This document shows positions 25,520 to 38,217 of a DNA stretch of 47,447 bases, in pieces. The first letter of the stretch is position 1. Every line of letters begins with the position of its first letter. The notes below the pieces were generated by a model. The model had not been told where the DNA came from, did no database searches, and saw only the letters and a list, made by a program, of their open reading frames with translations. The DNA lies in the NCBI GenBank assembly GCA_028873515.1, contig JAGWIG010000015.1, forward strand, positions 1 through 47,447. Direction: 5' to 3'. Source of the stretch: Pseudomonadota bacterium (GTDB lineage: Bacteria > Pseudomonadota > Gammaproteobacteria > Burkholderiales > REEB80). The translations under genes were made by a program, and so were the position numbers.

Positions 25520-25593
25520 ATTCAGGACTTCCTGATCGATAAAAGAGGCGGACTGGGGCAGTTTGTCTGAATTTTTATGTGTGGATACTGTTT

Positions 25594-25613
25594 GAATGGA
25601 GCGGGTGAAGGGA
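25594..25613. repeat. attL of island 2
   Basis: GAATGGAGCGGGTGAAGGGA, identical to 38141-38160. It is the duplicated 3' end of the minus-strand tRNA-Gly including the CCA. Sequence on both sides differs from the right copy. Confidence 0.88.
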
Positions 25614-25659
25614 TTATAATAAATCACTATAAATAAACAACATTTTTTGCTATTATTAC

Positions 25660-25728
25660 CTACACAGAACCTACACAGATATGGCAAATCAAGCACTTAC
25701 GCCGCCAATCTGCACAGTTTCTGCACAG
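25660..25728. promoter_or_regulatory. Candidate integrase arm-type sites, left end of island 2
   Basis: CTACACAG at 25660-25667 and 25671-25678, and CTGCACAG at 25710-25717 and 25721-25728. Each pair is spaced by 11 bases. A similar pair sits at the right end (38068 and 38079). The set lies just before the integrase stub. Confidence 0.6.
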
Positions 25729-25743
25729 TGGGAAGTTCAGAAA

Positions 25744-26243
25744 TGCAGTTTATCACGGACAAAGAGCAGTTGAAGCCGGGCCTCATCATTTTCAAGCGCG
25801 GCGATGTCGGGCACGACAATTATTACTGCCGGGTGAGAATCCAGAACGAGGACCGCTACAAGACCATTTCGCTGCGCACGGCGGACCGGCAGACGGCGCG
25901 CGACTACGCGCTGGACCAATATGCGGACATCCGCTTTCGGGTGAAGCACGACGTTCCAGTGTTCAACCGCCCATTCTCGCAGGTAGCGGAGGAATACGCC
26001 GAAGCGCAGCAGCGTCGCGCCAATGCTGGCGAGGTCAGCCAGGCGCGCGCGATGAACGTCAAGAACAAGATCGACGGCCCCCTCAATGCCTATGTCGGCA
26101 GTACGCAAGTGCATCTCATTACGCAGGAGCGCTGGACGGATTATCCCCTCTGGCGCAGGGAGAACGGCAAGGGCCGCCGCGAAGTCCGCGATCCCAGATC
26201 GGGACCCGGCCAATCCGCAACGGCGTGCCCGGAATGTTGCTGA
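25744..26243 (+). pseudogene. Truncated tyrosine integrase (N-terminal part)
   Basis: About 145 residues of a phage-type integrase are readable from the ATG at 25744: an N-terminal DNA-binding domain (LKPGLIIFKRGDVGHDNYYC, then KTISLRTADRQTARDYA) and the start of the core-binding domain, up to QERWTDYPLWRRENGKGRRE. After that the frame runs into unrelated sequence and stops at 26241-26243. The whole catalytic domain with its Arg, His and Tyr residues is missing. The breakpoint is near 26185-26200, where another gene's 3' end begins in a different frame. The protein, if made, could bind arm sites but not recombine. Confidence 0.8.
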
Positions 26244-26679
26244 ACAGGCGGAAACTGCGCCCGACAAGGAGAGCGAGATTCGCAACCGGTCAGTTTCCGT
26301 CGGCCGGGAGGACGTGAAGGCAGAGGCGGAGCAATATTTGCGGCGACACTATCGCAACGAGGACGGCGAGATGACGTGCCAGATTTGCAAAGGCCCGCTG
26401 CCGTTCATGCTGGATGATGGAAGCGAATTTTTTGAGACGGTCGAATTCCTGCCGGGCTTCCACAAACGTCACTTTCAGAACTATCTCGCACTCTGCCCCA
26501 ATCACGCGGCAATGTATCGCTATGCGAACGGATGCAAGGAAATCATCCGCGATATGGTCGAAGATCTTACGGGCAATGAGCTTGAAGTCATTCTCGCGCA
26601 GAGAGACGTGACGATCTATCTCAGTACGGTTCACGTCATAGATATCAAGGCCGTTATCGCCGCAGAGGCCAAGGAGTAA
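26200..26679 (+). pseudogene. 3' fragment of a larger gene with a zinc-knuckle-like end
   Basis: The frame ending at 26679 becomes protein-like only after about 26200 (RARNVAEQAETAPDKESEIR) and continues with EQYLRRHYRNEDGEMTCQIC, then YLALCPNHAAMYRYANG. The CxxC...CPNH set resembles HNH/zinc-ribbon ends found at the C-terminus of long defence-island proteins with sacsin-like ATP-binding domains. No start codon belongs to this part: upstream codons are the integrase read out of frame. It is therefore read as the end of a gene whose larger portion was deleted with the rest of the integrase. Family assignment is tentative. Confidence 0.55.
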
Positions 26680-26697
26680 GGGGGCGATGCACCACAC

Positions 26698-29388
26698 ATG
26701 ACAGAAGCGACTGACCGCATCTTGGAGATGCCGGTGGGAGCCAGCTTCCACCGCGCCGACCTGCATATCCACTCTCATGGCGCTTCCCATGATGTGCGGG
26801 ACGGAAAGATGACGCCCAACGCCATTGTTGCGACAGCAGCCAAGGAAGGCCTTTCCGTTATTGCAATCACCGACCACAACGAAATCGATAACGTCGAGCC
26901 GGCTATCAAGGCAGCGGCAGGGTCTGGGGTAGTGGTCATCCCGGGCGTGGAGCTGTCTACGTCGCAAGGCCATTTGTTGTGTTACCTGCCGACGCTACAG
27001 GCGCTGCAAAAATATCATGGGCAGTTGAACGTCGTAGATCGCGGAAAACAGACCTCACGCTGCCAGCAATCCATTCTGGAGTGCCTGAACCTGCTGTCGC
27101 CGCTTGGCGGCTTCGCAATCCTCGCGCACGTGGACATAGCAACAGGCTTTGAAACTGAAAATCCCGGCAACTCGCCGCACAAGCGCGATGTGCTTTCCCA
27201 TCCGGCCCTACTCGGTATCGAACTCAAGCGGGCGGACTCGGTGATTTCCTATGGGCCGAGCGACCCCGACGCTGACCGGGTTCAATGCGGTCGAGACCGT
27301 ATTAAGAAGCTTGGCCTGGGCGCGAACCAAAATCTCGCCCGCGTATTGAACTCCGACGCACACACGCTTGATACGCTCGGCAAGAACGCCGAGAACGCGA
27401 AACGTGTGACACGCTATAAGATGGACACCCCTTCTTTCGACGCCCTGTGTATCGCCCTAGAAGACGCCGATGCGCGCGTTCGCATCGAGGATCAAATTCC
27501 TGAAACCATCCCCGTCATTCTGGGCGTATGCCTGGATGGCGGCTTTCTCGCCGGGCAGATCATTCAGTTCAGTCCGAACCTGAACTGCATCATCGGTGGG
27601 CGCGGCACCGGCAAGTCACTGACCTTTGAGTCCGTTCGTTGCCTTGCCGAGGACGCCAGCGACAGCAAGATCATAGATTCAGAAGTCTGGCCCGATGAAA
27701 TCCTGCTGGTCTGGAAGGACCAAGTAGGAGAAATGCACACACTCCGCCGACTCAAGGACGGCGAATTAGAAAACACGGATGACCCCGATTTTGGGCCATG
27801 CACGTTCGAGATCGATTGCTTCGGCCAAGGCGAGGCCGCGAAGATCAGCATGGAGGCGCAATCAGACCCGCTTGCGCTGCTGCACTATCTGGATAAGTTC
27901 GTGGATCTCACCGAAGCGCAGGAGCACGAGGAGGCGTCCCGCGAACAGTTGCTCACATTCCAGACCGAAATTGAGGGGGCAGAAGAGAACGTCCGGCAGA
28001 TACCCGAATACGAACGCATGCTCGCGACGACGAGGCAGCAGCTTGCCGCGCTAAAGAAGCCTGAAGTTAAAGAACTGATCGAGCTTCAACAGAAGATCGC
28101 CAGTGAACGCGAGCTTCGGACACAGATTACAGTGAAGCTGCAGGACGCCAAAAAGGGCGCGTCTCAGGTTGCAAAAAGTGCAGCCACGGAAATTCGTGAG
28201 CTTGCGGACCCCGATGCCTTGGCCGTTGGTGCGGCTGAGTTCAAAGCCATCACGGCGGCAGCGGTCGATTTTGAGGATGCGGTGGCGACTGCCGAGACTA
28301 CGTTACGCATCTCCCTTTCCGGTTTTGAAACAATCGTGACGGCGCAGATTGCGAACTGGCGCGCCAAAGAAGGCGAGTCGCAGAAGAAGATAGACGAGAA
28401 GCGGCGCGAGCTTGAGGCAGCGCGTGTTCCATTCGACATGTCGTACATTACAAAATTGACGACAGACGAGGCCAAGCATGCGCAGAATGTCAAGAACCTT
28501 AATTCATGGAAACCGCACCTGCTCAAGCTGAAAAAGCAGCGTGCGGAGGCGCTCAAGGAACGGTGGGCGGCACGTGAACGCGTTGCTACGATTCGCGACG
28601 CGTTCGGCAGACAGGCATCGGACACGCTGCGCGAGGCGCTGTCCGATTTGCAGGTCAGCTTGAAATACCAGCGCAATGCGCATTCACCGGGCGCAGCCGA
28701 CCTTATCATTGAGACAATGGGCTGGAAGACCAATCAGCAGCCGCGCGCAGCCTATCTCGTCGGCGAATTGACGGTGCCATTTTTGCTGGACGCTATTACG
28801 CGCAATGATACCGCGCCTATCACAAAGTTAAAGACCCCGGAAGGGGTGGTGGTTTTCAAACGCGACGAGGCGCAGGCAATCATCGATCGGCTGAAAGAAA
28901 CGGCAATCAAGTGCGCGCTGGAGCGGATGGAGTTGCATGATCTTCCAAAGCTTGTTGTGACGCGTGAGCTGCCGGACGGCAGCGGCGGCAAGAAATTCGT
29001 CCAACGGGAATTCTCAAGACTTTCGTTAGGTCAGCAACAGTCCGTATTGCTGGCGCTTATCCTGTCCGCCAACAGTAACCGCCCGCTTATCATCGATCAG
29101 CCGGAAGACAACCTGGATGGTGAGTTCATTTATTCAACGCTAGTGCCAGTGTTGCGCCAGGCCAAGGAACGGCGCCAGGTCATCATCGTTACACATAATC
29201 CGAATGTGGCTGTGTTGGGTGATGCAGAGCAGATCGTCGTTATGAAAGCTATGCACAATAACGGTCAGATCGTATCACGCGGCTCTATCGACAATCAGCA
29301 GACTTGCGATGCGGCCTGCGCCATACTTGAGGGCCATCGCGAAGCCTTCCTGCGGCGTGCGAAGATGTACGGAATTAAATTGAGATAG
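26698..29388 (+). CDS. PHP-domain phosphoesterase fused to an SMC/ABC-type ATPase (TrlF-like)
   Basis: The protein has 896 residues. The N-terminal PHP domain carries the metal-binding set: DLHIHSHG (His23, His25), ITDHNEID (Asp59, His60), Glu85, ILAHVD (His144) and LNSDAH (Asp220, His222). An ABC-type ATPase follows with Walker A GGRGTGKS (300-307), a long coiled-coil middle (about 400-640), the signature SLGQQQ near 776, Walker B LIIDQPEDNLD near 797 and an H-loop VTHNPN. All active residues seem intact. The layout matches TrlF-family ATPases, known near RNA-repair and defence genes. A nuclease gated by ATP hydrolysis is the natural inference. It ends 215 bases before qatA and may be its own unit. 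Confidence 0.85.
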   Translation: MTEATDRILEMPVGASFHRADLHIHSHGASHDVRDGKMTPNAIVATAAKEGLSVIAITDHNEIDNVEPAIKAAAGSGVVVIPGVELSTSQGHLLCYLPTLQALQKYHGQLNVVDRGKQTSRCQQSILECLNLLSPLGGFAILAHVDIATGFETENPGNSPHKRDVLSHPALLGIELKRADSVISYGPSDPDADRVQCGRDRIKKLGLGANQNLARVLNSDAHTLDTLGKNAENAKRVTRYKMDTPSFDALCIALEDADARVRIEDQIPETIPVILGVCLDGGFLAGQIIQFSPNLNCIIGGRGTGKSLTFESVRCLAEDASDSKIIDSEVWPDEILLVWKDQVGEMHTLRRLKDGELENTDDPDFGPCTFEIDCFGQGEAAKISMEAQSDPLALLHYLDKFVDLTEAQEHEEASREQLLTFQTEIEGAEENVRQIPEYERMLATTRQQLAALKKPEVKELIELQQKIASERELRTQITVKLQDAKKGASQVAKSAATEIRELADPDALAVGAAEFKAITAAAVDFEDAVATAETTLRISLSGFETIVTAQIANWRAKEGESQKKIDEKRRELEAARVPFDMSYITKLTTDEAKHAQNVKNLNSWKPHLLKLKKQRAEALKERWAARERVATIRDAFGRQASDTLREALSDLQVSLKYQRNAHSPGAADLIIETMGWKTNQQPRAAYLVGELTVPFLLDAITRNDTAPITKLKTPEGVVVFKRDEAQAIIDRLKETAIKCALERMELHDLPKLVVTRELPDGSGGKKFVQREFSRLSLGQQQSVLLALILSANSNRPLIIDQPEDNLDGEFIYSTLVPVLRQAKERRQVIIVTHNPNVAVLGDAEQIVVMKAMHNNGQIVSRGSIDNQQTCDAACAILEGHREAFLRRAKMYGIKLR

Positions 29389-29603
29389 TGCGGACTTTCT
29401 GGCCGACGCAACTGATATCTTTGTGACTTCACGTTCCCAGAACAATGGAATGCATAAGGGTTGGAGAAGTCTGGTTTCATACAGGAGGGGGAATGCTATC
29501 GGTAAATGTTGCACAATAGTTCCAATAGATGCGATAAATATTTAACGTTGCATGGAAACATCCTATGTAAAGACCACACTGTATTGATGAGTTTGAATTC
29601 AAC

Positions 29604-31535
29604 ATGATAGTTGCTGATAACGAAACCGCAGTTGACCTTCTCTACTACGAGGCCATCGCGCGCACCGTAGTGCGACTTGTCAGTGACAAATCCGACGAGC
29701 CGCTCTCCGTCGGTGTGCACGGCGACTGGGGCGCGGGAAAGTCGAGCGTGCTTATGATGGTGGAGGAGGCCTTCGCGAAGGAAGACCGCGTCCTCTGCGT
29801 GCGCTTTAATGGTTGGCTATTCCAAGGGTACGAGGATGCGAAGGCCGTACTCATTGAGACGATTGTCGAGGAACTGCTTCGTAAGCGATCGACTTCCGCC
29901 AAAGTGAGCGATCAGGCGAAGCAGGTCTTGCGGCGCGTGGACTGGATGAAGATCGCGCGGAAAGTGGGCGGGTTGGCGTTTACTGCAGCGACGGGTATCC
30001 CGCATCCAGACACGCTCAAGGATTTGTATGCGGCGGTGTCCGGCCTGGTCGGCAAGTCCGCCGAAAATATCACGGGAGCTGACCTGAAATCGGTTGCCGA
30101 TCAGGCTGGACAATATCTGAAAGAGGCAGAGCCGGATGCGGCGCCACAGCAGATGCACGCCTTTCGGGAGGAGTTCGAAGAGCTCTTGCGTCGGGCAGAC
30201 ATTGACCGGTTGGTAGTATTGGTCGACGATCTGGACCGCTGCCTGCCTGAGACGGCGATCGAGACGCTCGAAGCGATTCGTCTGTTCCTTTTCGTGCCCA
30301 AGGCGGCGTTTGTTATCGCGGCGGACGAGGGCATGATCGAATATGCCGTTCGACAGCATTTTCCCGACCTCCCGGTGGCCACGGGGCCAGCTACGTACGC
30401 TCGCAATTATTTGGAGAAGCTGATTCAGGTACCGTTCCGGCTACCGTCGCTCGGATATGCGGAAACGCGCATCTACATCACACTCCTGCTGGTGCTGAAC
30501 GAGTGTGGCGAGGGTTCGGATGAATTCGCGAAGCTGGTAGGGCTTGCGCAGCAAGCGCTGCAGCGGCCATGGAAGGGGCCGGGCCTTAGTCGCGAGGCTG
30601 TGGCAAAGGCACTAGGATCGGTACCGGACTCCGTTGAGAGGGCGCTTAATCTCGCTCACCGGATTGCGCCGATCCTCACAGACGGTGCACGTGGCAATCC
30701 TCGTCAAGTGAAACGCTTCATCAACACAATGATGCTGCGTCTTGCCATTGCGCAGGAGCGTGGATTCGGTGACGACATCAATTTGACCGTTCTTGCGAAA
30801 ATCATGCTCGCAGAGCGGTTCGCGCCCGAAGTCTATGACGCCATTGCGAGAGGGGCTGCCGGTACGGGCGTCTCCCAAGAATTGATTGATCTGGAAGCCG
30901 CGGTTCACGGTGGCGAAGCGGAGGGAGCGACGCCGAAGGGAGGCAAGAAGGCAGCGGCAACGGTCGGTGAACCGCCCGTATTTCCGGATTGGCCAAATCT
31001 CGAATGGGCCAAGCAGTGGGCGAAGATAGATCCGCCGCTGGCCGAGTATGACCTGAGGCCATACGTCTTTGTGACGCGCGACCGGCGCAGCGTCTTCGGT
31101 GCGGTCACGTCGCTTGGGGAACTCGACGAACTACTGGCCAAACTGAGTGGCCCGCCGCTGCAGGTTCGACAGGCGACGGCAGCCGTTGTGCGCCTTACTT
31201 CGACTGAGGCCGAACAGCTCTTCGATGCGCTGAGAGCAAAAGTGGCCGCCGCCGAGAACCTTGGCGAGCAGCCGTCCGGTGCGCAAGGACTCGCGGCGAT
31301 CTGTCAGTACCACGCCTTCCTGCAACCCTCCCTCGTTGCGCTCCTACGGAGCTTGCCCGTGTCGAAGCTAGGGCCGTGGGTCGTCACCGGCTGGGCAAAT
31401 GCCGTAACGAATGAAGAGCCCAAAGCTGCGTTTGAGGCGCTGGCGTCTGAGTGGGCTGCCCAGAGCGAAAACAAGCAGCTGCAGGCGGCCGCGAAGGCGG
31501 TGGCGAAGATGCGCAAACCGGGGAGTTCGCGCTGA
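29604..31535 (+). CDS. qatA: QatA, KAP-family P-loop NTPase of the Qat anti-phage system
   Basis: The protein has 643 residues. Walker A GDWGAGKSS lies at 40-48, just before VRFNGWLFQGYEDAK, the KAP-family FNxW/F segment. Walker B LVVLVDDLDRC lies near 203-213, followed by the KAP FVIAADEGMIEYAV. A weakly hydrophobic stretch (about 120-145) stands where other KAP proteins have membrane helices. The C-terminal half is helical. The gene starts the operon and its TGA overlaps the qatB ATG (TGATG). In Qat systems (ATPase, QatB, QueC-like, TatD-like) all components are needed for defence, but the mechanism is unsettled. The 215 bases before it are AT-richer and probably hold the promoter. Confidence 0.9.
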   Translation: MIVADNETAVDLLYYEAIARTVVRLVSDKSDEPLSVGVHGDWGAGKSSVLMMVEEAFAKEDRVLCVRFNGWLFQGYEDAKAVLIETIVEELLRKRSTSAKVSDQAKQVLRRVDWMKIARKVGGLAFTAATGIPHPDTLKDLYAAVSGLVGKSAENITGADLKSVADQAGQYLKEAEPDAAPQQMHAFREEFEELLRRADIDRLVVLVDDLDRCLPETAIETLEAIRLFLFVPKAAFVIAADEGMIEYAVRQHFPDLPVATGPATYARNYLEKLIQVPFRLPSLGYAETRIYITLLLVLNECGEGSDEFAKLVGLAQQALQRPWKGPGLSREAVAKALGSVPDSVERALNLAHRIAPILTDGARGNPRQVKRFINTMMLRLAIAQERGFGDDINLTVLAKIMLAERFAPEVYDAIARGAAGTGVSQELIDLEAAVHGGEAEGATPKGGKKAAATVGEPPVFPDWPNLEWAKQWAKIDPPLAEYDLRPYVFVTRDRRSVFGAVTSLGELDELLAKLSGPPLQVRQATAAVVRLTSTEAEQLFDALRAKVAAAENLGEQPSGAQGLAAICQYHAFLQPSLVALLRSLPVSKLGPWVVTGWANAVTNEEPKAAFEALASEWAAQSENKQLQAAAKAVAKMRKPGSSR

Positions 31536-32401
31536 TGGGTACCTCGGGCAGCTTCGGTGGTTCAAAGAAGGGCCTTGTACCGACGTGGGTAGATGACCCG
31601 TCGCCGGCTCCAGCCGCCTCACCCGCAGACGGTGCGCCGACATCGGGAGATGGCGGCGGCGATGGACCACATGACGGCGACAGCCCGGCGTCCCCGGTTG
31701 CCTATCCGCCAGTGCGTCCTGCGCCCGCTTATTCCGGGCTCGGTGCTGCACGGGGAAACATGACCCGCGGGGCACGTACGTCCGATGGCCGAGCCATCCG
31801 TCACGGTGCGGGGCAATACGTTGCCGCCAGCGGCGGCGGCCGTGGCGCCGCCCGACGCATCCCCAGCTCGCGGGCCACAGCGGGAGGTGTCGCGGCGTTT
31901 GCGCATAGCTTTGCAACGCGGGGTCCGGTCGAAACGCTGCGGCGCTTCAACCTCGAACGGCTGGTAGGCGCACCCGCGACCGATGTGTTCGTCGCCCTAA
32001 CAGACGCTCTATGTCCGCCAGGGGGCATGATCGATGAAGCGATCGCGCGCGACGCTATGCTGGAAACCGTGGCGGCACTGGCCGCCGACGGTGTCGGCGA
32101 TTTCGATGAGCTGACGGCAGAAGATCTTCAGGAGTTCTTTATCGGTGTCGTCACCCGATCCATAGAGGGAAAAATTCTGAACGAGGTAGGTACGAACGCC
32201 ATCCGTCTTCCTCCGGACGTGGCGGCGGTGGAGCGGGCCCAGCGCATGTTGCACGACTTCGTAGACGGATGCGTGCGGGACAGATTCGCCGCTAGCGGCG
32301 CAAATTTGGCAGAGATCAACAATGAACAGATCGATCGCTTTGTTTCGGACCTCTATGTAGCAGCCTTCGATCTGATCCAGACACTGGGTGAGGCGCCATG
32401 A
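31535..32401 (+). CDS. qatB: QatB
   Basis: The protein has 288 residues, starting at the ATG at 31535 that overlaps the qatA stop. The family-type start MGTSGSFGGSKKGLVPTWVD is visible only from this ATG, which decides against the longer frame from 31451. Residues of about 20-115 are low-complexity Pro/Gly/Ala/Ser and likely disordered. The folded part begins near RGPVETLRRFNLERLVG and is helical to the end (AVERAQRMLHDFVDGCV). No catalytic motif is seen. It is the structural or sensing component defined by association with qatA, qatC and qatD. Its TGA overlaps the qatC ATG by four bases. Confidence 0.88.
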   Translation: MGTSGSFGGSKKGLVPTWVDDPSPAPAASPADGAPTSGDGGGDGPHDGDSPASPVAYPPVRPAPAYSGLGAARGNMTRGARTSDGRAIRHGAGQYVAASGGGRGAARRIPSSRATAGGVAAFAHSFATRGPVETLRRFNLERLVGAPATDVFVALTDALCPPGGMIDEAIARDAMLETVAALAADGVGDFDELTAEDLQEFFIGVVTRSIEGKILNEVGTNAIRLPPDVAAVERAQRMLHDFVDGCVRDRFAASGANLAEINNEQIDRFVSDLYVAAFDLIQTLGEAP

Positions 32402-33762
32402 GGAGGTTCAGTCTTGTTGGCAGGCTTGGTCCAGACGACAAAACACGGATTGCGATTCTCCAGAGAGACTCAGCTGCCTACGAAATCGATTTTCTGAATG
32501 CCGACCGGCGCCTTGATTTCGGCATCGGACACGCGCTCGATCAGTTGCGCTCGCTCGGTCTTGCGCCATCGGAGGCCGCTGTGGATTTGGTGCTGGTCGC
32601 GGCGCTGGTTAATGCGGGGGACACACGGGTATCGCGAGCGGCGAACGCACAGGATGGCTGGACACGCGAGATCGATCTCTATGCGCCCGTCTCTGATCCC
32701 ATGCGGTGGGCCGAGCTTTCAGGAGAACTCGAAGCTTTGTTGAAGTTCCTGACGGGGGACCGCTGGCGCTTCTTTTTTCGGGCCAGACCGAAGCGACTGT
32801 CATCACTTGTCGAGCTGGCGGAAAATCTCCCGCTCGACGGGCTTGATGAAGTTTGTCTATTCTCAGGCGGGCTCGATAGCCTCATCGGCGCAATCGATCT
32901 GATAAAAAGCGGCCGACGTCCCCTCCTCGTTAGCCACTACTGGGACGCTGAGACGTCAAAGGCCCAAACATATCTCCTGGAGCGACTTGAGCGGCGGTTT
33001 CCGATTCCTGAAATCAGGTCGATTCGCATCCGCCTCGGCTTCGATCGAAATGACTTGAATACCGGGGAGACGGAAGAAACACAGCGCGGGCGATCCTTCC
33101 TGTTCTTCGCGTTGGCGTCATTGGCAGCCTCGTCGTTCGGGAAGCCAACCACGGTTAACGTACCCGAGAATGGCCTTATCGCGCTTAACGTGCCGCTGGA
33201 TCCGTTGAGATTTGGTGCTCTGAGTACGCGGACGGCGCACCCCTATTTTATAGCGGGCATGAACCGGCTTCTCCGGGCGATCGATGTTGAGGCTACCCTT
33301 GTGAACAGGTATCGCCACAAGACCAAAGGTGAAATGACCGCCTCCTGTGCCGATCGGGAATTCCTGAAGAAGGTGGTGGCGAATTCGATGTCGTGCTCGT
33401 CGCCGGCAAAGGCTCGATACAAGAAGCTCTCACCCCGGCATTGCGGCTACTGCGTGCCATGTCTGATCCGCCGTGCATCGCTGAAAAAAGGCCTTGGGAC
33501 AGCGGACCCGACCCTGTACACGGTCCCTGTTCTATCGGCACAAGCATTACTTACTAACAAGGCAGAGGGCCAGGACGTTCGCTCCTTTCAACTCATGGCC
33601 GATCGCATCAAGAAACGGCCGGAGCTGGCAAAAATACTCGTTCACAAACCTGGCCCGCTAATGGATGCGCCCTCCGAAGTGGCCGCTTACGCCGACGTGT
33701 TCGGACGTGGAGTTCTGGAAGTCGCAGTGCTCCTTCGTGGTGTGACCGCGAAACCAGGTTGA
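32398..33762 (+). CDS. qatC: QatC, QueC-like PP-loop enzyme
   Basis: The protein has 454 residues. The PP-loop ATP pyrophosphatase motif SGGLDS is at 156-161 in EVCLFSGGLDSLIGAIDL, preceded by a family-specific N-terminal domain of about 145 residues that true QueC lacks. The C-terminal part has SCSSP and HCGYCVPCLIRR (about 331-357), the four-cysteine zinc site of QueC enzymes. In queuosine synthesis QueC makes preQ0; in Qat the same fold is thought to modify something by amidation/nitrile-type chemistry, with the target unknown. ATGA overlap with qatB and near-overlap with qatD show tight coupling. No other queuosine genes are present. Confidence 0.92.
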   Translation: MRRFSLVGRLGPDDKTRIAILQRDSAAYEIDFLNADRRLDFGIGHALDQLRSLGLAPSEAAVDLVLVAALVNAGDTRVSRAANAQDGWTREIDLYAPVSDPMRWAELSGELEALLKFLTGDRWRFFFRARPKRLSSLVELAENLPLDGLDEVCLFSGGLDSLIGAIDLIKSGRRPLLVSHYWDAETSKAQTYLLERLERRFPIPEIRSIRIRLGFDRNDLNTGETEETQRGRSFLFFALASLAASSFGKPTTVNVPENGLIALNVPLDPLRFGALSTRTAHPYFIAGMNRLLRAIDVEATLVNRYRHKTKGEMTASCADREFLKKVVANSMSCSSPAKARYKKLSPRHCGYCVPCLIRRASLKKGLGTADPTLYTVPVLSAQALLTNKAEGQDVRSFQLMADRIKKRPELAKILVHKPGPLMDAPSEVAAYADVFGRGVLEVAVLLRGVTAKPG

Positions 33763-33767
33763 ATCCA

Positions 33768-34517
33768 ATGCAACCCGAATTCGTCGATTTCCATTGCCAC
33801 CTCGATCTCTATCCCGACCTGGAGACCGCGATAGCAAAATGTGATGCCTTGAGAGTTGCCACGCTGGCCGTCACCACGACGCCGAAGGCTTTCGCGCGCA
33901 ATCAGCAACTAGCGCGTCAGAGTGAATTCGTCCGTGTCGCGCTCGGCCTCCATCCTCAGCTCGTGGCGGAGAGGGCGATGGAACTCGATCTCTTCAGTCG
34001 CCTCCTCCCTGAAACACGCTATGTCGGCGAAGTCGGACTCGACGCGGGGCCGCGCCACTATCGGTCATTTGAGACACAGAAGCATGTCTTCCGTACGATA
34101 CTCACTCTCTGTGCGCAGGCGGGAGATAAGGTACTGAGCGTGCACAGCGTTAGGGCCGCAAAGCACGTTCTCGACCTGATCGAGGAGTGCCTTCCGAAGG
34201 GGCGGGGGAAAGTTGTCCTCCACTGGTTCACGGGGAGTGCCGCTGAAGTACGGCGTGGCTTGGAACTGGGCTGTCTTTTCTCTGTTAACGAAAGGATGTT
34301 GAGCTCGCCGAACGGACGCAAGATTCTGCAAGAAATTCCCAACACCCGCCTGCTGACGGAAACGGATGGCCCGTTTGTCGAGAGGTCTGGCAACGCGATC
34401 ACGCCCGGCGATGTCCTGCCGACACTGGAGGCAATTGCAAAAGTCAAAGACCTAGCGGTGGAAGCCGTGCAACATCAGGTCATCTCTAACTTGAGTAACA
34501 TGTTGCGCACTCTTTGA
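33768..34517 (+). CDS. qatD: QatD, TatD-family metal-dependent hydrolase
   Basis: The protein has 249 residues from the ATG at 33768, five bases after the qatC stop; a TTG at 33759 would give a TTGA overlap and is the alternative. TatD residues are in place: FHCHLD (His9, His11), GEVGLD (Glu near 88), a histidine in LSVHS (near 125), LHWFTG (His near 152) and LTETDGPF (Asp near 201). The protein should be a metal-dependent nuclease or hydrolase. As the fourth gene after qatABC it completes the Qat set and is therefore not the housekeeping tatD. Confidence 0.92.
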   Translation: MQPEFVDFHCHLDLYPDLETAIAKCDALRVATLAVTTTPKAFARNQQLARQSEFVRVALGLHPQLVAERAMELDLFSRLLPETRYVGEVGLDAGPRHYRSFETQKHVFRTILTLCAQAGDKVLSVHSVRAAKHVLDLIEECLPKGRGKVVLHWFTGSAAEVRRGLELGCLFSVNERMLSSPNGRKILQEIPNTRLLTETDGPFVERSGNAITPGDVLPTLEAIAKVKDLAVEAVQHQVISNLSNMLRTL

Positions 34518-34575
34518 GGGGACTTGCAGGGCTTGGGCCGTCACTCCATGACAGAGTGTATGCTAGGGTGAAGTT

Positions 34576-35505
34576 ATGGGACTCTTGTCAAAACTTCTAG
34601 GTCGGGGAAATTCGCGCAAAGGTGTGCGCGCCGGCGTGCCGCCGTCGGCAACCTTCTCGTTCTCAGACAGGTTTGTTAATATTCCCGGCTACGACATGTT
34701 TGGTCAGTTCGACCACTCGCCCAACAGACGCTTCTTCTTGGTGTGGCGTGATTCCTATGGCTCTAGCAGCGACGGCGTGACCGAGACGATCCAGGGTCGC
34801 TATATGCTGTTTGACGGCGAGCGTGCGGTTTGCGATTTGCGTATGGCGCGACCGAATGACGGCAAGGTGTCCGACACTGGCGTCTTTATCCTGAACGACT
34901 GGGGCGGCAGGTCCGATCTATCTGGCACCTTCTATGCCTTTCGTCCGGACGGCCCCGAAATCCTGCATCAGGATTATCAGGCCAACCTCTACAACAACGG
35001 GCTAGCGCGCGATGGCAACGTCCTGACCATATTCGATCTCCAAGCAGGCAAGGAGTATTCACGCTGGAGGGCAGAAAGTGGCTGGCCCGAAGGCTATGAA
35101 TTTTCCGAAGACGGCAGCAGGGTGTCCCTGACTGTCCGTGGCATCGGCAAATTTGCCTATTCGCTGGACGGCGCATTTCTGGATCGTCAAGCCTGGTTCG
35201 ATGCCGGCATTGCCAGCGGTCAGATGCAGATCATCGCCAGCCTGTTGCGAGAGACGGGCGATGTGCCCAATGCGGATAAACTTCGCAAGGCAATCGGCGG
35301 GATAGATGCGGCGCTAGCGAATCCTCGGAATTCGGATTCGCGTACTCAAGCCTACGCTCTCAGACTGAAGGCGGAGTGCTACGACAAGCTGGGCGCATTG
35401 ACAGAGGCGTTGGCGAACTATGATGCGGCGCTTTCCAAGGACAGTAAGATAGGGGCGAAGCGCCGGGCGGCCCAGATCCGAAAAGTGTTATCGAAGGAAT
35501 CGTGA
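34576..35505 (+). CDS. Unknown protein with C-terminal TPR-like repeats
   Basis: The protein has 309 residues, starting 58 bases after qatD with AGGGTGAAG as SD. The N-terminal ~200 residues are beta-rich with repeated short motifs (NRRFFLVWRDSYGSSSDG, GTFYAFRPDGPEI, NNGLARDGNVLTIFDL, YEFSEDGSRVSLTV), suggestive of beta-propeller blades. The last ~75 residues are helical with TPR character (AYALRLKAECYDKLGALTEA, then LANYDAALSKDSK). No enzyme motif is visible. It could be an accessory sensor of the Qat operon or an independent cargo gene; no standard Qat system needs it. Function unknown. Confidence 0.65.
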   Translation: MGLLSKLLGRGNSRKGVRAGVPPSATFSFSDRFVNIPGYDMFGQFDHSPNRRFFLVWRDSYGSSSDGVTETIQGRYMLFDGERAVCDLRMARPNDGKVSDTGVFILNDWGGRSDLSGTFYAFRPDGPEILHQDYQANLYNNGLARDGNVLTIFDLQAGKEYSRWRAESGWPEGYEFSEDGSRVSLTVRGIGKFAYSLDGAFLDRQAWFDAGIASGQMQIIASLLRETGDVPNADKLRKAIGGIDAALANPRNSDSRTQAYALRLKAECYDKLGALTEALANYDAALSKDSKIGAKRRAAQIRKVLSKES

Positions 35506-35554
35506 CGCCTGTGCCGCTTGGGGGCCACTCATCTGGCCGACGGAACCCTTTGGC

Positions 35555-35772
35555 ATGCTGCACCTCGACGCCGAAACCTCAATCGCGGTTCAACTCGTGA
35601 GCGATGTAAGCGGCGACGAGCGTGATCACGAGGCGGGCATCGCACATATGCGCACCGCGTGATCGATATCGCTCTGAGTAATGTTGATCGGTTCAGCGCG
35701 GTCGCGGAGTTCGTGGTGTCAGTGGTGTCGATTGACCGTCTCAAAGACTACGGTGAGCCTCCCGAGGAATGA
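35555..35772 (+). pseudogene. Decayed small gene between the TPR gene and the HipA gene
   Basis: Two protein-like stretches in different frames abut. The first starts at the ATG at 35555, reads MLHLDAETSIAVQLVSDVSG and on to AGIAHMRTA, then stops at 35660-35662. The second is open from about 35659 to a TGA at 35770-35772 and reads VIDIALSNVDRFSAVAEFVV and on to KDYGEPPEE. They probably formed one gene now split by a frameshift near 35659. The family is unknown. The rest of the 533-base gap (35506-36038) carries the operators listed separately. Confidence 0.35.
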
Positions 35773-35939
35773 GCCCCTGATTCCTCGTCGTGCAGTCGCC
35801 GCGTTAATGTATCAAAGCAAGGGAAATTACGGGGTTTTGTGTCTAAAAAAGTAAAATCAAAGGTCTTTCGCGTGCCGGCAGCGCCGTCCAGAAAATCGGC
35901 AGGGCACCCCTCCCAGGGCCCAAACTGATTAGTTTCTCT

Positions 35940-35970
35940 AACTATCGCGTACTTGAAGCACTCGATAGTT
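35940..35970. promoter_or_regulatory. Operator-like palindrome 1 upstream of the HipA fusion
   Basis: AACTATCG (35940-35947) and CGATAGTT (35963-35970) are perfect arms around GTACTTGAAGCAC. The core matches that of palindrome 2 in the form GTACYTGAAGYAC. The centres of the two sites are about 65 bases apart. Confidence 0.65.
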
Positions 35971-36002
35971 GTAATTCATCTTGACGCAAATCGCTAAAAA
36001 TG

Positions 36003-36037
36003 CTAACTTAGTCGTACCTGAAGTACGGGAAAGTTAG
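36003..36037. promoter_or_regulatory. Operator-like palindrome 2 abutting the HipA start codon
   Basis: CTAACTT (36003-36009) and AAGTTAG (36031-36037) flank CGTAC-CTGAA-GTACG (36013-36027). The right arm ends one base before the ATG at 36039 and includes the only SD-like purines (GGGAAAG). The palindrome could be a protein operator, or an mRNA hairpin that hides the ribosome site. Confidence 0.65.
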
Positions 36038-36038
36038 A

Positions 36039-37877
36039 ATGGCGCTCCACCTCGTCGGCGAAACTCTGGATAAGACCCGCAGCCACTATCTGGCCGAGAC
36101 GGGTAAGCTCGTCCAGCTTATGCGCGGTATCTACGTCGATGCCGACGACGACATCGACGCTACCGTCCTGAAGCACGCGGTCCGCATCGCCAAATATCTT
36201 TACCCCCAAGCCTACCTATCCGCAGCAAGTGCCGCCTTGCTTGGGCCGACCCGCGATGGCCGGCTGTTCCTGAGCGCCCGGCGCAAGCAGCGCACCCGCA
36301 TCCGCGTGTTGGAGATCATCCAGAACGAAGCGCCCAAACACCCGTCCGTCGGCGACGCCGTCGTCGATGACGGTATGGGCGAATTCCATGTCAGCGTCTC
36401 GTCGATCCGTCAGCGCTTTCTCGAAGCCTTCCGCCTGCGCAGCGAACATGCTGCGTCCATTGATGAAGATATGCGGGCGACGATCGCCGCCCGCTTGATC
36501 GAGGAATATGGCAGCGCGCAAACGGCAGCGGATGCGCTGTGGACGCTTGCCCGCGAGAACCAATGGTATCGGGAAGGCGAGTCAGCCGAGCGCTATCTCC
36601 GGCATAAGCCAAGTGCTATGCCAGCGAAGAATGAGGCGGCGCTCGACCTCATTGTCGCCTGGCATGGCGCGTCGTTGGGTCATTTGACTCACGACGGTTT
36701 CGAGTGGCGCTGGCAGCCGATGGATGGAGCGGGGCCGCCGCTCATTCGGCAAACCACGCCCGGCAAACTGCCGCCCTTTATCGTCTCGCTGCTGCCAGAG
36801 GGATGGCTCGAAAAAGTCCTCAAGGACAAGGACGAGCGCACGCTGCTGCGGTCGGGCAAGCGCTACATGTCGAATATCACCATCGTCGAACATGAAGCCG
36901 AACTGGCGGCGCTGCCGCCAGACGTTCTGCTCACCCGGCTTGAGAAATACACCAGGGATGGCACCTTCACCGGATGGTATGCCGGGCCGGGCCGCAGCGA
37001 AATCGAAGCGAACTTCGAGCACAATCTTGCGCAGATTTACGAGCGGGCCGACACGCCGCGCCTTTCAGGCGTTCAGATCAAGGCACCGATGTATCTTGAT
37101 CCCGAAGGTATTCTGTCGCCCAGCACCGGAAAGCCCTTCACCCATATCCTGAAGCCGGCGGGGACCAGTGGCTACGATGCTTTGCCGCTGGTCGAATGGA
37201 CCGCAATGGCGCTCGGTCGGGCCGCGGGCTTTGAGGCCCCGGCTACTGCGCTGGTCGGCATGCCGGATGGCATGCCGCCGGCGCTCGTTGTCGAGCGCTT
37301 TGACATAAGGGAGAGCCGTGCAGACAAGAGAATGATGGCGCTCGAAGACCTTTGTTCCGTTCTCGACCTGCCGGTCACGGCTAAATACGATGGGACAATG
37401 GAACGCGTCGCACGCGCCGTCCGGCCGTTATCGACGGCACCTGAAGATGACCTTATTATAATCGTCAAGCGCGCGCTCTTCGCTTGGCTGATTGCCGACG
37501 GCGACATGCACCTGAAGAACATGGCGTTGTTCAAGATTGCGGAACCCAAAGACCGACAATTCCGCAGTGTCCGCATGGCACCGCTATATGACGCGGTGAC
37601 AACGCGGGTCTTTCCGAATCTCAAGCATGACCGCATGGCGTTAAAACTCAACGGCAAGGATGACAATTTGCGTCGCGCCGATTTCCGCGCGCTCGCGGCG
37701 ACGGCGGGCCTAAGGGCCGCCGATGCCGACGTCGCAATTGATGATATGTTGCAGCGGATGGGCGGCGTCGTTGATCGGATCACCTTGCCCAAGGCTATCG
37801 AACACACTGCGGACGCAGGAAAGATTGTCAAAGAGATGCTCGATATCTGCCGCAAACGTATCGAATCGTTTGCATGA
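36039..37877 (+). CDS. HipA-family kinase toxin fused to an AbiEi-like N-terminal region
   Basis: The protein has 612 residues, longer than usual HipA (about 440). Residues of about 1-80 (GKLVQLMRGIYVDADDDID) resemble the winged-helix, 'L-x-RG-x-Y' opening of AbiEi/type IV antitoxin regulators. From about 200 the HipA fold follows: ASLGHLTHDGFEWRWQP, KLPPFIVSLLPEGWLE, THILKPAG (ATP-loop lysine), the catalytic loop IADGDMHLKNMALF near 487-494 (D-x-H-x-KN) and APLYDAVTT (metal-binding Asp). The kinase appears active. HipA toxins phosphorylate tRNA synthetases and related proteins, normally held by a separate HipB. No HipB-type gene is adjacent, so the N-terminal region may be the regulator and bind the two palindromes upstream. 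The target is unknown. Confidence 0.82.
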   Translation: MALHLVGETLDKTRSHYLAETGKLVQLMRGIYVDADDDIDATVLKHAVRIAKYLYPQAYLSAASAALLGPTRDGRLFLSARRKQRTRIRVLEIIQNEAPKHPSVGDAVVDDGMGEFHVSVSSIRQRFLEAFRLRSEHAASIDEDMRATIAARLIEEYGSAQTAADALWTLARENQWYREGESAERYLRHKPSAMPAKNEAALDLIVAWHGASLGHLTHDGFEWRWQPMDGAGPPLIRQTTPGKLPPFIVSLLPEGWLEKVLKDKDERTLLRSGKRYMSNITIVEHEAELAALPPDVLLTRLEKYTRDGTFTGWYAGPGRSEIEANFEHNLAQIYERADTPRLSGVQIKAPMYLDPEGILSPSTGKPFTHILKPAGTSGYDALPLVEWTAMALGRAAGFEAPATALVGMPDGMPPALVVERFDIRESRADKRMMALEDLCSVLDLPVTAKYDGTMERVARAVRPLSTAPEDDLIIIVKRALFAWLIADGDMHLKNMALFKIAEPKDRQFRSVRMAPLYDAVTTRVFPNLKHDRMALKLNGKDDNLRRADFRALAATAGLRAADADVAIDDMLQRMGGVVDRITLPKAIEHTADAGKIVKEMLDICRKRIESFA

Positions 37878-38067
37878 ACGGCAAAGCTAATGCCTTTTGT
37901 GGATTGATTGCGGCCGGGCGGCGCTATGCCGAGCGCAGGCTGTTCGATGGCGTCGGGCGCAGTCGATAAGCGGCAGGCATTTTCTTGGAACGGGCGACAG
38001 CTTGCATTTCATGGCCGAAAAACGAATCGCATGGCTGGGCAGGAAGACGCCGAATCCCAAAATACTT

Positions 38068-38086
38068 CTGCACAATTCCTACACAG
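38068..38086. promoter_or_regulatory. Candidate integrase arm-type sites, right end of island 2
   Basis: CTGCACAA at 38068 and CTACACAG at 38079-38086, 11 bases apart, mirror the words at the left end. The 266 bases from 37878 to 38143 otherwise show only short unconvincing ORFs. Confidence 0.5.
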
Positions 38087-38140
38087 CCAAAAATATCTGA
38101 AAATTATTTATATATTTCAATTGTTTGTATAAATCAAAAA

Positions 38141-38160
38141 GAATGGAGCGGGTGAAGGGA
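38141..38160. repeat. attR of island 2
   Basis: Identical to 25594-25613 and formed by the 3' end of the intact tRNA-Gly, which was restored by the crossover. Confidence 0.88.
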
Positions 38161-38217
38161 ATCGAACCCTCGTCACTTGGTTGGGAACCAAGAACTCTAC
38201 CATTGAGCTACACCCGC
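38144..38217 (-). tRNA. tRNA-Gly(CCC)
   Basis: Read on the minus strand: acceptor GCGGGTG pairing with CACCCGC, D-arm AGCTCAATGGTAGAG, anticodon stem CTTGG/CCAAG with loop TTCCCAA (anticodon CCC), T-arm GAGGG-TTCGATT-CCCTT, discriminator T and encoded CCA. Length 74. Intact, and host site for island 2. Confidence 0.96.

What the first reader, a model, noticed from the sequence alone, without database searches (positions are those of the whole stretch)
26698..34517. PHP-SMC ATPase placed directly upstream of a complete QatABCD operon
Both units seem intact, with all active-site residues. The PHP protein couples a phosphoesterase to an SMC-like ATPase and may be an independent defence nuclease, or a functional partner of Qat. 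Nested start/stop overlaps run through qatA-qatB-qatC, but 215 bases separate the PHP gene, so regulation probably differs.
Basis: partly seen in the sequence, partly recalled or inferred. Interest (0 to 1): 0.55.

Follow-up and report, generated by a model that had tools for sequence, protein, structure and literature searches.

The report
Two phage-defence modules in tRNA island
A 12.5-kb piece of foreign DNA inserted at a glycine tRNA gene carries two separate bacterial anti-phage modules side by side, a solo nuclease-ATPase of the TrlF family and a complete Qat operon; this looks like ordinary stacking of defence genes rather than one combined system.

Summary
A PHP phosphoesterase-SMC-type ATPase (26698-29388, 896 aa, PHP and ATPase residues present) lies 215 bp upstream of an intact qatABCD operon (29604-34517). 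The PHP-ATPase is a TrlF-family protein, a distant relative of the single-gene exonuclease Ppl.

Both modules are cargo of one 12.5-kb island in the 3' end of a tRNA-Gly gene. It has a perfect 20-bp repeat at 25594-25613 and 38141-38160, 58% GC against 42-43% in the flanks, arm-site-like repeats, a truncated integrase, and an empty site in a congener.

A fixed TrlF-Qat unit is not supported. TrlF was beside 0 of 28 other Qat loci, and Qat near 0 of 25 other TrlF loci. The one exception is a TrlF remnant of another subfamily abutting a truncated qatC on a Pukyongiella plasmid. TrlF's recurrent partner is TrlG (AlbA_2 + HATPase), directly downstream in 11 of 20 genome loci. It is absent from the window's TrlF clade (0 of 9), whose eight scorable members keep a complete PHP site. 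I read the window protein as a stand-alone nuclease, probably Ppl-like, stacked next to an independent Qat system. Function is inferred; nothing was assayed.

The parts
25594..25613 (+). attL: left copy of the perfect 20-bp direct repeat
   Evidence: two exact copies in the draft genome; the 17-bp core TGGAGCGGGTGAAGGGA also lies upstream of a related integrase in viral contig L245
25660..25728 (+). two pairs of CTRCACAG repeats 11 bp apart (integrase arm-type-like sites)
   Evidence: both pairs lie in the region conserved in L245 (the first copy there reads CCACACAG). Unpaired matches occur elsewhere in the window
25737..26243 (+). N-terminal part of a tyrosine integrase; no catalytic domain
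   Evidence: 87% identical to a frame at the end of viral contig L245; weak match (E 7.4e-5) to a 426-aa frame whose Pfam hits are Phage_int_SAM_5 and, below Pfam's cut-off, Phage_integrase; no Pfam hit of its own
26218..26679 (+). C-terminal remnant of a protein whose complete relatives on Rhizobium and Ensifer plasmids are about 1040 aa and follow a helicase gene; the one Rhizobium copy scanned has a sacsin domain and TmtA-like matches, its helicase is DrmD-like
26698..29388 (+). trlF: PHP phosphoesterase + SMC/Rad50-type ATPase, 896 aa
29389..29603 (.). 215-bp intergenic gap, 41% GC, no sigma-70-like match
29604..31535 (+). qatA (KAP P-loop ATPase)
31535..32401 (+). qatB (MGTS N-terminus, P16, W18)
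32398..33762 (+). qatC (QueC-like)
33759..34517 (+). qatD (TatD-family nuclease); start TTG 33759 or ATG 33768
34576..35505 (+). 309-aa cargo ORF, weak TPR-like C-terminus (below cut-off), function unknown
36039..37877 (+). 612-aa cargo ORF with HipA_C domain
38068..38086 (+). CTGCACAA/CTACACAG pair 11 bp apart at the right end (arm-type-like)
38141..38160 (+). attR: right copy of the 20-bp repeat, covering the 3' end of tRNA-Gly
38144..38217 (-). tRNA-Gly (anticodon CCC), the integration target

Best explanation
This is a 12.5-kb integrative island, now without a complete integrase, inserted in the 3' end of a tRNA-Gly gene. It carries two independent anti-phage modules stacked as cargo. Module 1 is a solo TrlF-family protein: an SMC/Rad50-type ATPase head with a coiled coil, fused to an intact PHP phosphoesterase. 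I propose it acts alone, like its relative Ppl: the ATPase part recognises abnormal DNA (ends or phage intermediates) and gates the PHP site, which then degrades nucleic acid. Module 2 is a standard Qat system: QatC (QueC-like) is thought to modify the N-terminal glycine of QatB, the QatBC complex gives the core defence, and QatA and QatD widen the phage range. Shown here: gene content, motifs, island boundaries, empty site, lack of recurrent TrlF-Qat linkage in the samples taken. Inferred: all function and the Ppl-like mechanism.
For: Island: perfect 20-bp repeats, GC 57.7% against 42.1% and 43.4%, cargo GC3 0.63-0.77 against 0.37-0.47 in four host genes, empty site in congener G008, and att core, arm-like repeats and integrase start conserved in viral contig L245. 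Independence. Solo clade. PHP site 9 of 9 residues. Model pLDDT 85.5 resembles SMC/JetC/Rad50 heads, EndoQ and the RNase AM PHP domain. Ppl mechanism from the review PMC12904381, section 5. Qat mechanism from PMC13279940, Results section.
Against: I found no paper that shows TrlF to be anti-phage. In Photorhabdus no selected mutation hit trlF. The window protein scores only 145 of the 1000 bits needed for Ppl. The Pukyongiella remnant shows that TrlF and Qat have been adjacent at least once more. The 28 Qat loci are a modest sample: the upper 95% limit for TrlF linkage is 12%. Left-flank synteny with G008 is imperfect: two genes next to attL in the window are not at that place in G008.
Confidence: 0.75

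Rival explanations
1. TrlF is an accessory or regulator of this Qat system, so that trlF-qatABCD is a five-gene defence system.
For: Same strand, directly upstream, both intact, same island; an independent TrlF remnant abuts a truncated qatC on a Pukyongiella plasmid.
Against: 0 of 28 other loci with QatA+QatC have TrlF; 0 of 25 other TrlF loci have Qat; 0 of 72,556 plasmids in the joint query; QatBC alone protects against lambda-vir without any PHP protein (PMC13279940); the two TrlFs beside Qat are of different subfamilies.
Confidence: 0.06
2. The solo TrlF is a growth-restriction or stress module like the Photorhabdus temperature restriction locus, not a defence protein.
For: The TrlF name comes from that locus, which arrests growth at raised temperature.
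Against: There the mutations mapped to trlG, which this clade lacks; relatives sit beside BREX, CBASS-like and Septu genes.
Confidence: 0.12
3. The trlF gene is a passenger without present function in an immobilised, decaying island.
For: The integrase is truncated and the gene upstream of trlF is reduced to its C-terminus.
Against: The 896-codon frame is open and all nine PHP and five scored ATPase residues are kept.
Confidence: 0.12

Closest known systems
TrlF family AAA-like ATPase (NCBIfam NF045780), incl. Photorhabdus TrlF
   Same: Full-length match over the cut-off, PHP + SMC-type ATPase
   Different: No TrlG neighbour, unlike the Photorhabdus locus (PMC7554251) and 11 of 20 genome loci here
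Ppl, single-gene anti-phage PHP exonuclease (NF042955, PADLOC PDLC02208)
   Same: PHP + NTPase in one gene; partial homology; best PADLOC hit of the window protein
   Different: 145 bits against a cut-off of 1000, so not a Ppl
qatABCD
   Same: All four genes, order, overlaps and key residues
   Different: Nothing essential seen; preceded by TrlF
tRNA-targeting integrative defence islands (general kind, recalled)
   Same: tRNA 3'-end repeats, integrase next to one att site, foreign GC
   Different: Integrase truncated, so presumably not mobile on its own

Membership tests
TrlF family (NF045780) | Match over the curated cut-off (350 bits) | tested here: met
   500.4 bits, residues 14-892
TrlF family (NF045780) | TrlG (AlbA_2 + HATPase_c_4) directly downstream, as in the Photorhabdus locus | tested here: not met
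   No TrlG-like frame in the window. Not part of the model's own definition: 9 of the 20 genome loci lack it too, one of them (L089) with only a TrlF fragment
Ppl (NF042955) | Match over the curated cut-off (1000 bits) | tested here: not met
   145.4 bits
Ppl (NF042955) | ssDNA 3'-5' exonuclease gated by nucleotide depletion | not testable with these tools
   Needs a biochemical assay; mechanism taken from PMC12904381
Qat | QatA, QatB, QatC and QatD all over cut-off in one operon | tested here: met
   order and overlaps
Qat | QatB MGTS N-terminus; QatC SGGxDS, Thr-x-Thr and four cysteines | tested here: met
   criteria from PMC13279940
Qat | Protection against phage | not testable with these tools
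tRNA-integrated genomic island | Direct repeat of the tRNA 3' end at both ends | tested here: met
   20 of 20 bp, two exact copies in the draft genome
tRNA-integrated genomic island | Empty site in a relative | tested here: met
   G008: tRNA-Gly with 219 bp to the GST-gene match and no island; two host genes next to attL are not at that place in G008
tRNA-integrated genomic island | Complete integrase | tested here: not met
   Only the N-terminal part

The most novel reading that the evidence does not exclude
The TrlF family holds two designs: a TrlG-coupled design in which the PHP site is often degenerate, so that TrlF serves as sensor or motor for another effector, and a solo design with a complete PHP site. 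The window's clade would then be an uncharacterised single-gene, Ppl-like anti-phage nuclease family distinct from Ppl.
Probability: 0.45. Interest if true: 0.5.

Novelty: new member of a known kind. Interest (0 to 1): 0.3.

Why it matters
It replaces a tempting but unsupported 'PHP-Qat' system with a concrete unit: a bounded tRNA-Gly island with two stand-alone modules. It also points to a testable split in the TrlF family. In the passages I saw of the paper that named TrlF, its role was left open; a solo clade with a complete PHP site is a simple place to find out what it does.

Tried and rejected
Rejected: TrlF-Qat as one system (co-occurrence fails, see rivals). Rejected: the PHP-ATPase as Ppl itself (145 of 1000 bits). 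Not established: a causal link between TrlG and PHP decay. The raw table gives TrlG in 3 of 19 PHP-intact and 9 of 17 non-intact proteins (Fisher p 0.033; L040 and L086 could not be scored for the PHP site and were left out). The tree allows only 3 independent contrasts and the sign test gives p = 1. L071 and L083 lie on contigs of 5-6 kb; they were counted as lacking TrlG and, with L084, left out of the TrlG counts. Against a TrlG rule: only 1 of 17 viral TrlF-like loci scanned has TrlG next to it (L201), though several of these have incomplete PHP sites.

Led nowhere: one genome-contig scan with the single protein gave 1 locus. QatC in viral contigs gave 1 locus. The integrase fragment had no Pfam hit, no PHROG hit better than E 0.026 and no plasmid match; it was placed only through. 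The promoter scan gave fewer sites than the shuffles. No solved chain matched a Ppl-like query at E 1e-8. Paper searches whose listings showed nothing on TrlF in phage defence: (20 of 38 papers listed); the main text of PMC13092281 holds neither TrlF nor PHP. Supplementary files could not be read.

Weak hits set aside: 30-aa and 69-aa matches to TrlF in Qat loci L114 and L115; a 23% KAP match in viral locus L207; a 30.5-bit TrlG-like hit about 7 kb from TrlF in L160. Five QatC-like loci below the cut-off and without QatA (L100, L105-L108) were left out of the 28. Of the 24 genomes with a TrlF match, wider regions were fetched for 20; for G092, G511 and G505 (fragments) only the short loci are held, and G000 is the window's own genome. 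Limit of the joint query: a QatA match covers about 60% and a divergent TrlF tail about 17%, so such a pair could fall just short of 80%; none of the 60 rows listed had a TrlF piece joined to a QatA piece, and 1164 rows were not listed.
Full report
What is there. The PHP-ATPase passes the NCBIfam TrlF model (500.4 bits, cut-off 350), not Ppl (145.4 of 1000) or Spaf_1101 (219.6 of 475). QatA-D pass their models and PADLOC gives them the same names. QatB begins MGTS with P16 and W18; QatC has SGGLDS, STRT and four cysteines, the features that PMC13279940 reports as conserved or essential (Results section read). The solved QatC chains it matches are 9zee and 9vlk.

Active sites. The nine PHP metal-site positions I scored (H23, H25, D59, H60, E85, H92, H144, D220, H222) are all present in the window protein, as are the five ATPase positions scored. 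The choice of PHP positions follows the general PHP motif pattern, which I recall, and the alignment. An AlphaFold2 model from 15 sequences has mean pLDDT 85.5 and pTM 0.70. Foldseek matches it to Wadjet JetC, SMC, MukB and Rad50 heads, to the PHP-type endonuclease EndoQ (5zb8) and to the RNase AM PHP domain (7ug9, TM-score 0.60 by target). Whole-chain superpositions are poor, as expected for a multi-domain protein.

The island. GC jumps from about 0.40 to 0.57 near 25.6 kb and falls back near 38.0 kb: 57.7% inside against 42.1% and 43.4% outside. Codon usage of nine cargo genes or fragments (GC3 0.63-0.77) differs from four host genes (0.37-0.47). A perfect 20-bp direct repeat lies at 25594-25613 and 38141-38160. 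The right copy covers the 3' end of a tRNA-Gly(CCC) gene, and there is no third exact copy in the draft genome. Pairs of CTRCACAG-like repeats 11 bp apart lie at both ends; single matches also occur elsewhere in the window. Next to the left repeat is the N-terminal part of an integrase. The same order of core, arm-like repeats and integrase start is found in viral contig L245, 84% identical at DNA level over window 25592-26116, with identity starting at the core. In the congener G008 the same tRNA-Gly stands 219 bp from the GST-gene match, followed by the ArsR-like region, tRNA-Ala and RND genes, with no island. Two window genes next to attL (AI-2E transporter and beta-helix protein) are not at that place in G008: the beta-helix protein lies elsewhere on the same contig and the transporter has no match at E 1e-30. 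So the island boundary is firm, but the left flank has been rearranged in one of the two species.

Other cargo. Upstream of trlF is only the C-terminus of a protein with relatives of 1041, 1041 and 1034 aa on two Rhizobium plasmids and one Ensifer plasmid, each following a helicase gene. The Rhizobium copy scanned has a sacsin domain and TmtA-like PADLOC matches, and its helicase is DrmD-like. A Proteus relative (850 aa) has no such neighbour and no Pfam or PADLOC hit. Downstream of qatD are a 309-aa ORF of unknown function and a 612-aa HipA_C protein.

Is TrlF tied to Qat? TrlF side: 20 of 369 class genomes have TrlF over the cut-off, the window's included; 0 of 14 control genomes do. I fetched 20 regions of this survey and 5 further TrlF loci, 4 on plasmids and 1 in Dyella. 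None of the 25 holds a Qat gene, tested with window Qat proteins and with nine Qat queries. Two of these contigs are only 5-6 kb long, and L089 holds only a TrlF fragment. Of 80 viral-contig loci kept from 89 with TrlF-like matches, many to the ATPase half only, none holds Qat beyond one weak KAP match.

Qat side: 34 loci were examined, of which 28 have both QatA and QatC; none of these 28 has TrlF (95% upper limit 12%). Five more are QatC-like loci without QatA. The last, Pukyongiella plasmid p2, carries a truncated qatC and qatD abutted by about 185 codons of a TrlF of another subfamily (44% identical to L070, no significant match to the window TrlF). So TrlF and Qat were probably adjacent there too, before a deletion or rearrangement; an assembly error is not excluded. 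A joint TrlF-QatA query covered at least 80% in 0 of 72,556 plasmid records (limits in Tried and rejected) and 0 of 50,697 phage records. Nineteen of 5,426 E. coli genomes matched a Pantoea qatC query; the three loci read, one of each match class, have no TrlF. A published neighbourhood study of QueC-family proteins names qatA and qatD beside QatC and does not contain the word PHP in its main text (PMC13329287, passages).

What TrlF does pair with. TrlF was named in Photorhabdus from an operon with trlR and trlG in which the temperature-tolerance mutations mapped to trlG; none was found in trlF (PMC7554251, passages). A gene with TrlG's two domains (AlbA_2, HATPase_c_4; 4 of 4 scanned) lies directly downstream of TrlF in 11 of 20 genome loci and next to it in 1 of 17 viral loci. 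It is absent from all nine members of the window's clade (100/100 support). In that clade the PHP site is complete in the 8 of 8 that can be scored. Over 36 scorable TrlF proteins 19 have a complete site. TrlG goes with incomplete sites (9 of 17 against 3 of 19, p 0.033), but the tree gives only 3 independent contrasts, so this is a lead. The nearest relative, in Dyella flagellata (66%), stands between CBASS-like genes (read by eye from the ORFs: patatin, nucleotidyltransferase, E1/E2, JAB) and a Septu PtuA-PtuB pair. Polaromonas and Paraburkholderia relatives have BREX genes within a few genes; the Sphingomonas and Cupriavidus relatives do not. Ppl and TrlF intergrade: one TrlF of the survey (L072) scores 599 of the 1000 bits for Ppl.

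Reading. The simplest account is a tRNA-Gly island that has accumulated independent defence modules. [quoted passage not shown] The window protein is related but outside the Ppl model, so substrate and trigger may differ. For Qat, the QatBC core and the accessory role of QatA and QatD follow PMC13279940. I found no paper testing TrlF against phage (searches; most subscription papers are not in that library).

Noticed in passing
25594-38160: The whole finding sits in a tRNA-Gly island with perfect 20-bp att repeats and a truncated integrase.
   Followed up: yes
L245:2841-3378: An IMG/VR contig carries the same att core, arm-like repeats and integrase start (84% DNA identity), a likely relative of the element that delivered the island.
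   Followed up: partly
26218-26679: C-terminal remnant of a protein that on Rhizobium and Ensifer plasmids follows a helicase gene; that intact unit (small ORF, DrmD-like helicase, sacsin-domain protein) may be an undescribed defence operon.
   Followed up: partly
L042:9495-10049: Pukyongiella plasmid p2: N-terminal TrlF remnant of another subfamily abuts a truncated qatC followed by qatD.
   Followed up: yes
36039-37877: 612-aa HipA_C protein in the island; a weak match, far below the cut-off, to the HipA-like toxin YjjJ.
   Followed up: no
L240:8713-10857 (contig C207 of the same genome): A 714-aa protein whose N-terminus matches the PHP end of the TrlF model (82.9 bits, cut-off 350) and which has ABC/AAA ATPase matches: possibly a second, distant PHP-ATPase.
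   Followed up: partly
L070-L089: The 7 TrlF proteins with Q and N in place of the first two PHP histidines all have a TrlG gene directly downstream (7 of 7); they form one clade.
   Followed up: partly
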